NCBI GenBank assembly: GCA_024275565.1
Contig: JAJRYY010000082.1
Coordinates: forward strand, 1-34,616
DNA: 34,616 bases
DNA from: Planctomycetota bacterium
Lineage (GTDB): Bacteria > Planctomycetota > Phycisphaerae > UBA1845
Direction of reading: 5' to 3'
Part shown: piece by piece, positions 13,686 to 17,887 of the stretch
How positions within the stretch are numbered: position 1 is the stretch's first letter
Layout: each line of letters begins with the position of its first letter
Notes under the pieces: generated by a model
The model's database searches: none
The model's input: the letters and a program-made list of their open reading frames with translations, nothing else
Told to the model about the DNA's origin: nothing
Position numbers and translations under genes: made by a program

Positions 13686-14915
13686 TCAATACCTGATCCT
13701 CTTGGTACGAACTATTCGTCCCAGCGACGTCTGAGCCAGAATTTCGGCAATTCTTGCGCCCGCTCCGCCGGAACCGTAAACTGAGCGTCGTGAGCGCCTC
13801 ATCCTGCCCGGACCCGCCGCCAGCGCCGTCCCGATCGCCTCACAAATGTCACGATACGATTCGCCAGAATCAATCACAAATCGCCCGTTGCGAAGTCGGC
13901 CCGCCTGGCGCGATCCCACGTTGACCACCGGCGTGCCCAGCACTGCGGCTTCGATGATCCCGCTGGATGAATTTCCGATAAGAAGGCGCGAGTCGCTCAA
14001 GGTCCGTAGATATGCTCCCCGCTCCAGGGACGTTACGACGCGCACATTTTGCGCCCCATGCGACCTGTTCCCTGCTTGCTGTGACCTGTCTCTTGCTTGC
14101 TCTATGGCTTCGAGGACGCCGGAATGACCTCGGTCTGCGTTTGGGCCTATCACGATCCTGTCGAGTCCGTGGTGGTCGAGGGCGCGCAGGATCGCCCCCA
14201 TTGCTTGACGCTCGCGGGTCGCAGATCGCCCGGAGGCGTGGTAGAGGACGGTGGCTTGTTCGCGTTTTTTCGCTACGCCCCTGGAGCAGTGGCCATTGGA
14301 TTCTGGGTCGATCGATTCGGCGGCGATTTTGTAGGCTTCGTCCAAGCCTGGGGCGCCTACGATGTGGACGCTGTGGTGATGTTCGCCCATGCGGACGATC
14401 CGGCGGGCCGCGTCTCTGGTGGCTGCGAGATGAATGTGTGCGAGTTTTGTGATGCTGTGTCGCAACGCGTCGTCCATATCGCCGGGTGCGACGTCACCTC
14501 CGTGGATGTGTGCTACGATTTTGCCCATGGTGGTTCCCGCGAGCGCTCCTGCCATTGCTTCGATACGGTCTCCGAGCACCAGTACGACGTCCGCGTTGTC
14601 TGATTCGAGAAATCGTGCCATTCCGCGCACGCCGCGAGCCAGGCCCTCAGCCTGGTCCTGTGGCGAATCCAGTCCTCGTTGCATGGGTATTCGAGCGTGA
14701 ATCCTCCAGCCATCCTGCTCGATGTGGCGTACTGTGCGTCCGAATTTTCGGAGCAGGTGCAGGCCTGTTGCGACGAGGAGCAATTCCAGCTTTGGATGGT
14801 TTTCGATGGCTGCGATCGTTGTTCGGAGCAGGCCGTACTCTGCGCGCGTGCCTGTTATCACGCAGACGCGTGTCTTTCTTCGGTTGCCTGATTTTGTATG
14901 ATTGTGTCTGGTCAT
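13686..14915 (-). CDS. neuC: UDP-N-acetylglucosamine 2-epimerase (hydrolysing), NeuC-like
   Basis: RVCVITGTRAEYGLLRTTIAAIE, VLVLGDRIEAMAGALAGTTMGKIVAHIHGGDV, LLIGNSSSGIIEAAVLGTPVVNVGSRQAGR. Confidence 0.88.
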   Translation of the reverse strand: MTRHNHTKSGNRRKTRVCVITGTRAEYGLLRTTIAAIENHPKLELLLVATGLHLLRKFGRTVRHIEQDGWRIHARIPMQRGLDSPQDQAEGLARGVRGMARFLESDNADVVLVLGDRIEAMAGALAGTTMGKIVAHIHGGDVAPGDMDDALRHSITKLAHIHLAATRDAARRIVRMGEHHHSVHIVGAPGLDEAYKIAAESIDPESNGHCSRGVAKKREQATVLYHASGRSATRERQAMGAILRALDHHGLDRIVIGPNADRGHSGVLEAIEQARDRSQQAGNRSHGAQNVRVVTSLERGAYLRTLSDSRLLIGNSSSGIIEAAVLGTPVVNVGSRQAGRLRNGRFVIDSGESYRDICEAIGTALAAGPGRMRRSRRSVYGSGGAGARIAEILAQTSLGRIVRTKRIRY

Positions 14916-15051: not shown

Positions 15052-16983
15052 TCATGCGAGCATGTTCGATTCGAGTGGGGTGTCTGCCTGAATTGCTCTG
15101 GCTGCCGTCCGCCCCATTACGAACTGGAAGCGGTCGGGTGCCAGTCCCATGCCAGCTCGTTTGAGCGTCAGCATCTCGCGTGTGATCCGTTCGCCCGTTG
15201 CGATGTTTCGCACTGCGACGATGGACTTTCGAGCGACCTTGCGTATTTCAGATTCTCCTGCCGAGCATCCGAGCGATCCCGCCCCCATCGACCGCTTTGC
15301 CGCCCGGGCGATGCGGATGTATTCGGCCAGTGCATCCGGCGTGAGTGACATGGCGTGGTCTGGACCTGATGCGGATGGGTCGAGGGTGAAATGCTTTTCC
15401 AGGATGCACGCACCTGCTGCTACCGCCAGCGCTCCTGTCAGGGTTTCCAGGGTGTGGTCGCTGAAGCCTGCTGGTACGTCGAATTGCCTGGAGAGCGTTG
15501 CGATCGCACCCAGATTGGCTTCGTCCAGAGGGGTTGGATAGCGACTTACACAGTGCAGGAGGTATGTGCGATTGCGCGCGTTGTGCTGGTCTGCAAGCGT
15601 TATGGCGGCGGCGATTTCTTCCACCTCGGCTGCTCCGGTGCTCAGGATGACCGGAATGTTCATCGCAAAAACGTGATCGAGTAGATCGTGGTCCACGATG
15701 TCCGGCGAGGCGATTTTGACGCACGCGGGGGACAGCCTCTTCAATCGTGGGACATCGGACGTGGTGAAGGGCGTGGCGAGGAATAGAATGTTCCGCTGGC
15801 GACATCGTCTGGTGAGGCGATCGAATTCTGCGTCGTTCAGCTCCAGGGATGCCAGCATGTGTTGCTGGTCTGTGTGGCCGGTCAGCCTCACCTGATAGTC
15901 GGCTGTCGGTGCGCTGCCCGTCACCAGTGTGGTTGCGCGGAACATCTGGAATTTGATGGCGGATGCGCCTGCGTCTGCGGCAGCGTCTATCATCGCTAGT
16001 GCCACGTTTATGTCACCCTGATGATTCACTCCGGCTTCTGCGATCGTGAAAATGTCCTGCTCCGCACTTTCCAGCGGGTAGATCCCCATGGCTGGGATGG
16101 TCCTCGTATCGGGCGTCACGGTCATGTGTCGTGCGGTAGTGCCTTGCTGCGATGCGTGGACCATGTTCTGGTCTTCGTCCTTGTCTTCGTCCCGGGCATG
16201 GCGTCTGGGGTGGGGAAGACGTTCGGGATTGGGAAGACGTTCGGGGTTGGGAAGACGTCCGCCCTCCGGGTGGTGCTTCCTGGTGTTACACTTGAGTATC
16301 GCTTCTGCCAATGCGAGATCGGCTGCGTCGTCGATGTCCACGGCGTCGTTCGCCCGCTGGACAATCGCCCGCCTGTCTGCACCGAAAAACGCGTGTGCAT
16401 CCTCGGGGTGTTCTGTCGCAGCGAGCAAGGATGATCGCGTTACAACGACGACTGCTCCGTCGTGATAGTAGAGGGGGGTCAGGTCCTGCCGTCGGTGGAT
16501 GGTGTTGGGGCGGAACTGCACCATGCGATCGCCTTCCAACCGATGGAGCCAGTCGGGATGCTGCTTGGAGACTGGTGCGACTGTTCTGACGGAATCCGCA
16601 CCGGTATCGATGAGGTGTCGTACTGCGTGGTCAATGGCTTGTGGTGTTCGCACCGGGATGTTGCCATAGAGCAGGACCACCACATCCACCTGCCGCCCGA
16701 TATCGCGTTCCACGGTCGCGACGGCATGTCGCATGGTTTCATCGACAGGTGCGGTATCGGTTGCCAGTTCTGGTGGTCTGTGGATGGTGGCGACGTTTCG
16801 GGCTTTTGCCAGGTCGGCGGTTTGTGTGCAATCTGTGCTCAGGACGACGTGATCGATTTCCCGACTTGCCAGGGCGTGGTCGAGTGTGTATTCGATGAGG
16901 GGTCTGCCCAGGAGTGGGCGGACGCATTTTCTCGGTAGTCCTTTGCTTCCCTTTCGGGCTATGATGGTTGCGAGAATGTACAT
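15052..16983 (-). CDS. fused acylneuraminate cytidylyltransferase (NeuA-like) and N-acetylneuraminate synthase (NeuB-like, with SAF domain)
   Basis: N-term MYILATIIARKGSKGLPRKCVRPLLGRPLIEYTLDHALAS; C-term FTIAEAGVNHQGDINVALAMIDAAADAGASAIKFQMF...LSTGAAEVEEI...HTLETLTGALAVAAGACILEKHFTLD...SAF tail; NeuB part begins about 16089. Confidence 0.88.
   Translation of the reverse strand: MYILATIIARKGSKGLPRKCVRPLLGRPLIEYTLDHALASREIDHVVLSTDCTQTADLAKARNVATIHRPPELATDTAPVDETMRHAVATVERDIGRQVDVVVLLYGNIPVRTPQAIDHAVRHLIDTGADSVRTVAPVSKQHPDWLHRLEGDRMVQFRPNTIHRRQDLTPLYYHDGAVVVVTRSSLLAATEHPEDAHAFFGADRRAIVQRANDAVDIDDAADLALAEAILKCNTRKHHPEGGRLPNPERLPNPERLPHPRRHARDEDKDEDQNMVHASQQGTTARHMTVTPDTRTIPAMGIYPLESAEQDIFTIAEAGVNHQGDINVALAMIDAAADAGASAIKFQMFRATTLVTGSAPTADYQVRLTGHTDQQHMLASLELNDAEFDRLTRRCRQRNILFLATPFTTSDVPRLKRLSPACVKIASPDIVDHDLLDHVFAMNIPVILSTGAAEVEEIAAAITLADQHNARNRTYLLHCVSRYPTPLDEANLGAIATLSRQFDVPAGFSDHTLETLTGALAVAAGACILEKHFTLDPSASGPDHAMSLTPDALAEYIRIARAAKRSMGAGSLGCSAGESEIRKVARKSIVAVRNIATGERITREMLTLKRAGMGLAPDRFQFVMGRTAARAIQADTPLESNMLA
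16208..16261. repeat. 18-bp in-frame tandem repeat in the NeuA-NeuB linker
   Basis: GGGAAGACGTTCGGGRTT units; encodes the NPERLP repeats. Confidence 0.9.
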
Positions 16984-17446: not shown

Positions 17447-17536
17447 GAAAATTCCCGAGTTCGCAGCGGAGCCAACAGTGCGTCATGATGCCCCAACAGG
17501 GTGAATCACACCCATAGATGATGAGGAGAGGATTTC

Positions 17537-17887
17537 ATGTCAGCCGTGATCGACTGGTATTACCACCGCAAGGGGTGAAATTCGTGCAAGAAAACGCAGG
17601 GGTTCCTTGCGACGCACGAGGTTCTGGTTAGAGAGCAGGTGGATTCTGGGAAGTTGAAATATGGTGGGGATGAGGCATTGAAGCTTGCGCGTGCTGCGTC
17701 TCGGATTGTGGTTTCCCGGGGTGAGAAGGTCGTGCGGTTTGATATGGCAGGTGCCCCGCCCGCAGACGACGATATTTTACAACATATGCTTGGTCCGACG
17801 GGGAATTTGCGTGCGCCTACGATTGTGCGGGGTAAAACGCTGCTGGTTGGCTTCAATGCGGGGGTGTATGGGGAGGAATTTGCCTGA
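17537..17887 (+). CDS. ArsC/glutaredoxin-like family selenoprotein candidate (in-frame UGA at 17576-17578 read as Sec; U-N-S-C motif)
   Basis: Translation MSAVIDWYYHRKG[U]NSCKKTQGFLATHEVLVREQVDSGKLKYGGDEALKLARAASRIVVSRGEKVVRFDMAGAPPADDDILQHMLGPTGNLRAPTIVRGKTLLVGFNAGVYGEEFA*; strong RBS AGGAGAGG 5 nt upstream of the ATG; frame stays open through the TGA; plausible bSECIS hairpin. Confidence 0.85.
17583..17618 (+). promoter_or_regulatory. candidate bacterial SECIS hairpin
   Basis: Lower stem CGTGC/GCACG (17583-17587/17614-17618); upper stem CGCAGGG/CCTTGCG (17595-17601/17605-17611, one G-U) with a GUU apical loop about 23 nt after the UGA; folded by eye only. Confidence 0.5.

What the first reader, a model, noticed from the sequence alone, without database searches (positions are those of the whole stretch)
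17537..17887. Hidden selenoprotein gene: ArsC/glutaredoxin-like protein with an in-frame UGA at a U-x-x-C redox site
The ORF track gives only an 82-aa fragment from 17639. From the ATG at 17537, behind the strong RBS AGGAGAGG, the same frame runs through one TGA (codon 14) to the stop at 17887. It reads MSAVIDWYYHRKG-U-NSCKKTQGFL...RAPTIVRGKTLLVGFN. The TGA sits exactly where thioredoxin-fold proteins of this type carry the first Cys of CxxC. NCBI-style naming of an 'ArsC family (seleno)protein' group is consistent with this. Sec insertion is inferred. It implies a selenium-decoding system elsewhere in the genome.
Basis: partly seen in the sequence, partly recalled or inferred. Interest (0 to 1): 0.85.

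Follow-up and report, generated by a model that had tools for sequence, protein, structure and literature searches.

The report
Known selenocysteine thioredoxin-fold protein, missed gene
A small redox protein whose gene was cut in two by a 'stop' codon is really read through that codon as selenocysteine, as in dozens of relatives; the protein family is already catalogued, so this is a solid but ordinary missed-gene correction.

Summary
The selenocysteine reading is strongly supported. The product is a clear member of NCBIfam NF041106 'ArsC family (seleno)protein' (129.7 bits, cut-off 85). In 94 homologues the site is TGA in 83, Cys in 10, Asp in 1; the Cys three residues on is invariant. Across the phylum the TGA form goes with selA (66 of 70 genomes); the Cys-only form mostly lacks it (8 of 10). 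A 7-bp hairpin with a GUU loop, 23 nt after the UGA, is kept in same-order relatives by strong codon bias and meets published bacterial SECIS rules. The genome has adjacent selB and selA, and a selD with its own in-frame UGA and similar hairpin. The one gap: selC was not found in this draft assembly. The family is already in the literature (UxxC 'arsenate reductase 2', 2008; listed as NF041106 in 2026). Most likely a UxxC selenol/thiol oxidoreductase; arsenate reduction is untested.

The parts
17524..17531 (+). Ribosome-binding site AGGAGAGG, 5 nt before the ATG
   Evidence: sequence; purine-rich Shine-Dalgarno-like stretches stand at the same place in many homologues
17537..17887 (+). Selenoprotein gene, 116 aa, ArsC_rel_Se_1 family (NF041106), stop TGA 17885-17887
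17576..17578 (+). In-frame UGA, codon 14, read as selenocysteine (U of U-x-x-C); the resolving Cys17 is TGC at 17585-17587
   Evidence: 83 of 94 homologues have TGA here, 10 Cys, 1 Asp; Cys at +3 in 94 of 94
17595..17611 (+). Putative bacterial SECIS apical hairpin: CGCAGGG (17595-17601), loop GUU (17602-17604), CCUUGCG (17605-17611); 23 nt between the UGA and the loop
   Evidence: meets the published bSECIS constraints
17789..17824 (+). LGPTGNLRAPTI segment (residues 85-96) with the conserved Pro94, the likely cis-Pro of the thioredoxin fold
   Evidence: invariant G86, P87, G89, L91, P94 in 60 homologues; aligned with LRRP of Spx

Best explanation
The locus is a stand-alone selenoprotein gene. 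SelB with Sec-tRNA(Sec) reads UGA 14 as selenocysteine, guided by a hairpin whose loop lies 23 nt downstream. The product is a single-domain, 116-aa thioredoxin-fold protein of the ArsC/Spx/YffB superfamily with a U14-x-x-C17 active site at the start of helix 1. The most likely chemistry is that of a thiol/selenol-disulfide oxidoreductase: the Sec selenolate attacks a substrate disulfide or oxidised sulfur species, and Cys17 resolves the mixed selenenyl-sulfide. Shown by computation: the frame, the family, the Sec/Cys exchange tied to the Sec machinery, the hairpin, the fold prediction. Inferred: actual Sec insertion, the chemistry and the substrate.
For: NF041106 at 129.7 bits against a cut-off of 85; all 60 aligned homologues hit it. 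The codon is TGA in 83, TGC/TGT in 10 and GAC in 1 of 94, and the resolving Cys is invariant. TGA form: 66 genomes with selA, 4 without; Cys-only form: 2 with, 8 without; Fisher p = 7e-7, with the caveat that six of the Cys forms come from one family. Codons upstream of the UGA are protein-coding: W and R invariant, Y, Y, H nearly so, while third positions vary. Hairpin: 22 of 24 same-order sequences keep 7/7 pairs and two keep 6/7; two carry a G-C to A-U compensatory change; Leu is CTT in 24/24 against 12% elsewhere, and Gly is GGG in 22/22 against 23%. selB and selA are adjacent on C91. selD reads SCAGUAGK with a UGA and a GUU-loop hairpin. AlphaFold2 pLDDT 95; nearest solved folds Spx, YffB and ArsC-related; U14 sits just before helix 15-26.
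Against: selC was not found in the assembly by Rfam model, BLAST with a relative's tRNA(Sec), or a family-specific covariance model. Four TGA-form genomes lack a selA match and two Cys-form genomes have one. The exact 7-bp stem is lineage-specific: in other families the same columns mostly do not pair. There is no protein-level evidence.
Confidence: 0.95

Rival explanations
1. Pseudogene or sequencing error: TGA is a nonsense mutation or a miscalled TGC/TGT.
For: Draft assembly in 236 contigs; Cys codons occur at this site in some relatives.
Against: Eighty-three homologues have TGA at the same codon; the rest of the frame is intact and conserved; a hairpin is kept after it.
Confidence: 0.01
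2. Genome-wide reassignment of UGA to an amino acid (as in tables 4 or 25).
For: UGA lies inside this gene and inside selD.
Against: UGA is the terminator of this same gene (17885-17887) and of many relatives; the homologous residue is Cys, not Trp or Gly; selA and selB have no internal UGA in the matched stretch.
Confidence: 0.005
3. The real gene is the 82-aa ORF from GTG 17639, starting after the UGA.
For: It is the only ORF of this frame that a plain listing gives.
Against: It would lack strand 1, helix 1 and the whole U/CxxC site, which with GPxGxLRAP are the most conserved parts. The strong RBS is at 17524-17531, and the codons before the UGA are under protein-level constraint.
Confidence: 0.01
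4. The selenoprotein is a true arsenate reductase (glutaredoxin-type ArsC) rather than a general thiol-disulfide oxidoreductase.
For: Family label; ArsC-related structures among the matches.
Against: Below the Pfam ArsC cut-off (20.2 against 24). It has a two-residue UxxC site, whereas classical ArsC of this fold uses one Cys plus a set of Arg residues (general knowledge). No conserved gene neighbour was found at all, arsenic-related or other.
Confidence: 0.15

Closest known systems
ArsC_rel_Se_1, 'ArsC family (seleno)protein', NCBIfam NF041106 (listed as 'Arsenate reductase-like protein, UxxC' in PMC13188914; probably 'Arsenate reductase 2', UxxC, cd03032, in PMC2398784)
   Same: Full-length match over all 107 positions, UxxC motif, UGA at the Sec site
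   Different: Nothing of substance; this is one more member, in a draft genome
Spx/MgsR family (TIGR01617) and Spx structures 6gho, 1z3e
   Same: Best fold matches and among the best profile matches; CxxC in the same place; (L)R-x-P loop
   Different: 21.5 bits against a cut-off of 75; Sec replaces the first Cys; identity about 21%
Glutaredoxin-type arsenate reductase ArsC (PF03960) and YffB (1rw1)
   Same: Same fold class, cis-Pro loop
   Different: Below the Pfam cut-off; UxxC instead of a single catalytic Cys
UXX-star glutaredoxin-like selenoproteins (NF041212, NF047338)
   Same: Thioredoxin fold, Sec in first position
   Different: Weak partial matches only, far below cut-off

Membership tests
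NF041106 ArsC_rel_Se_1 | Whole-protein score above the curated cut-off (85 bits) | tested here: met
   129.7 bits, residues 5-111 on profile 1-107/107
NF041106 ArsC_rel_Se_1 | U/C-x-x-C at the N-terminus of helix 1 | tested here: met
   U14, C17; helix 15-26 in the model
Bacterial selenoprotein gene | In-frame UGA with Sec/Cys exchange among homologues | tested here: met
   83 TGA, 10 Cys, 1 Asp of 94
[quoted passage not shown]
   loop GUU, 7 bp, 23 nt, -9.6 kcal/mol in a 39-nt context; constraints from PMC13188914
Bacterial selenoprotein gene | Genome encodes SelA, SelB, SelD | tested here: met
   selB C91:32990 on, selA C91:35061-36428, selD C180:3121-4056
Bacterial selenoprotein gene | Genome encodes tRNA(Sec) | tested here: inconclusive
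   None in this 95%-complete assembly; canonical, highly conserved selC in most same-family genomes
Bacterial selenoprotein gene | Sec shown in the protein | not testable with these tools
   needs 75Se labelling or mass spectrometry
Spx/MgsR transcription regulator (TIGR01617) | Score above the curated cut-off (75 bits) | tested here: not met
   21.5 bits
ArsC (Pfam PF03960) | Score above the gathering cut-off (24 bits) | tested here: not met
   20.2 bits
Arsenate reductase | Arsenate reduction | not testable with these tools
   needs an enzyme assay

The most novel reading that the evidence does not exclude
A selenium-dependent Spx-like regulator: the protein's nearest solved relatives are Spx, so it could be a redox switch on RNA polymerase that uses Sec instead of Cys. 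A second possibility is that this species decodes Sec with a divergent tRNA that none of the models recognise.
Probability: 0.04. Interest if true: 0.6.

Novelty: new member of a known kind. Interest (0 to 1): 0.2.

Why it matters
It corrects a gene that ordinary callers truncate, and gives a well-supported example of a SECIS-type hairpin within one order, with codon-level evidence. The substrate of the whole family is still unknown, so the family remains an open biochemical question. It does not change any general picture.

Tried and rejected
The best hits are ordinary tRNAs, mainly Ser and Leu. Gene neighbours of selC are not broadly conserved among relatives, so no expected site could be located. 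A SelB tree shows that the selC-less genomes are scattered, and G014, which has a canonical selC, lies inside the group that holds G000, G020 and G029; this favours assembly gaps. No conserved gene neighbour of the ArsC-Se gene was found. My first extraction script read some minus-strand loci in antisense; it was redone correctly. One terminator-like hit at 17605-17621 is at chance level.

Full report
Observation. The sequence is as described. ATG 17537 follows AGGAGAGG; TGA is codon 14 (17576-17578); the frame runs on to TGA 17885-17887, giving 116 residues; the plain ORF list has only the 82-aa GTG ORF at 17639. The gene is present once in the genome that holds the window.

Family. With the TGA read through, the protein matches NCBIfam NF041106 'ArsC family (seleno)protein' end to end (129.7 bits, cut-off 85). 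Pfam ArsC (20.2, cut-off 24) and Spx/MgsR (21.5, cut-off 75) are below their cut-offs. All 60 homologues in my alignment hit NF041106. The 2008 ocean survey of Zhang and Gladyshev (PMC2398784) already lists 'Arsenate reductase 2', cd03032, UxxC. The 2022 review PMC9312934 lists an arsenate reductase-like UxxC protein with that survey as its source, and the 2026 review PMC13188914 lists it under NF041106 itself.

Codon 14 across relatives. Of 60 genomes of the same family and order (this one included), 26 carry the gene above cut-off, every one with exactly one in-frame TGA. Among 94 homologues read in full from the order and the phylum, the site is TGA in 83, TGC in 9, TGT in 1 and GAC in 1; the Cys at +3 is present in all 94. 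In 80 loci from titled GTDB genomes, partly overlapping that set, 73 have TGA, 4 have Cys and 3 did not fit my motif search. They come mainly from Planctomycetota, with some labelled Acidobacteria, Eisenbacteria and Tectomicrobia.

Link to the selenium machinery. In a phylum sample of 392 genomes, 70 carry the TGA form and 66 of them have selA. Ten carry only a Cys form and 2 of those have selA (Fisher p = 7e-7). Genomes are related, six of the Cys forms lying in one family, so the p-value overstates independence. The pattern nevertheless repeats within families f39, f55 and f61.

Coding upstream of the UGA. In the relatives W at -7 and R at -3 are invariant, and Y, Y, H at -6 to -4 nearly so, while their third codon positions vary. 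This argues against a start after the UGA.

SECIS. From 17595 to 17611 the mRNA folds as CGCAGGG-GUU-CCUUGCG, 7 bp, with 23 nt between UGA and loop. This meets the published bacterial constraints (loop 3-9, stem 4-16, 16-37 nt, G in the first two loop positions, MFE at most -7.5; PMC13188914). Among 24 same-order sequences 22 keep all 7 pairs and 2 keep 6; two show G-C to A-U compensation. Leu is CTT in 24 of 24, although only 12% of Leu codons elsewhere in these genes are CTT; Gly is GGG in 22 of 22 against 23%. A random synonymous recoding of the window sequence keeps 7 pairs in 2.2% of trials. In other families the same columns pair less (mean 3.1 of 7); some, such as CCCAGG-AGUU-CCUGGG, show a shifted hairpin at the same place. 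In the Cys/Asp forms the mean is 2.1 of 7. So the hairpin evidence is strong for this order and only suggestive beyond it.

Machinery in this genome. selB (C91:32990 on) and selA (C91:35061-36428) are adjacent. selD (C180:3121-4056) reads SCAGUAGK with its own UGA and a 7-bp GUU-loop hairpin, so at least two genes appear to use the system. selC was not found. Most same-family genomes have a highly conserved tRNA-SeC(tca). Five same-family genomes with selB, this one included, lack a recognisable selC and do not form a clade by themselves. An assembly gap is the simplest reading, but it is not proven.

Structure and mechanism. AlphaFold2 gives a confident thioredoxin-fold model (pLDDT 95.4, pTM 0.87). 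Foldseek's best solved matches are Spx, then YffB and ArsC-related proteins, with TM about 0.5; the profile search agrees. U14 precedes helix 15-26, and the conserved GPxGxLRAP segment aligns with the LRRP cis-Pro loop of Spx. I conclude that a Sec-based thiol-disulfide oxidoreductase is most likely (about 0.7 among functions), arsenate reductase less so (0.15), and an Spx-like regulator or something else makes up the remainder. These function odds are judgement, not measurement.

Verdict. The finding is real and the Sec reading is well supported, but the family and its Sec site are known. Interest is low.

Noticed in passing
G000:C76:45786-45934 (L238:786-934, minus strand): Two adjacent tRNA-like sequences; one is called by ARAGORN as tRNA-'Stop' with anticodon TTA, a long variable arm and G instead of U at position 33. 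It may be a degenerate or element-borne tRNA, or a misplaced anticodon.
   Followed up: partly
window 15052-16983 (-) and 13686-14915 (-): One ORF fuses a CMP-sugar cytidylyltransferase (NeuA-like) to a NeuB synthase with SAF domain, next to a UDP-GlcNAc 2-epimerase: a compact sialic/legionaminic-type nonulosonic acid cluster.
   Followed up: partly
L117 (G104:C12:140623-140940): A paralogue with Asp (GAC) in place of Sec, in a genome that also has the TGA form; the resolving Cys is kept.
   Followed up: partly
L044/L045 (G016:C633): A copy with an extra in-frame TAG near the UGA and a frame break; probably decayed or an assembly error.
   Followed up: no
G000, G017, G020, G029, G031: Five same-family genomes, two of them 97% complete, have selB but no recognisable selC. 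By rough count from their completeness figures about two such cases would be expected, so chance gaps are plausible but not certain.
   Followed up: partly
L073 (G027:C13): In one relative selC lies about 3.4 kb from the ArsC-type selenoprotein gene.
   Followed up: no
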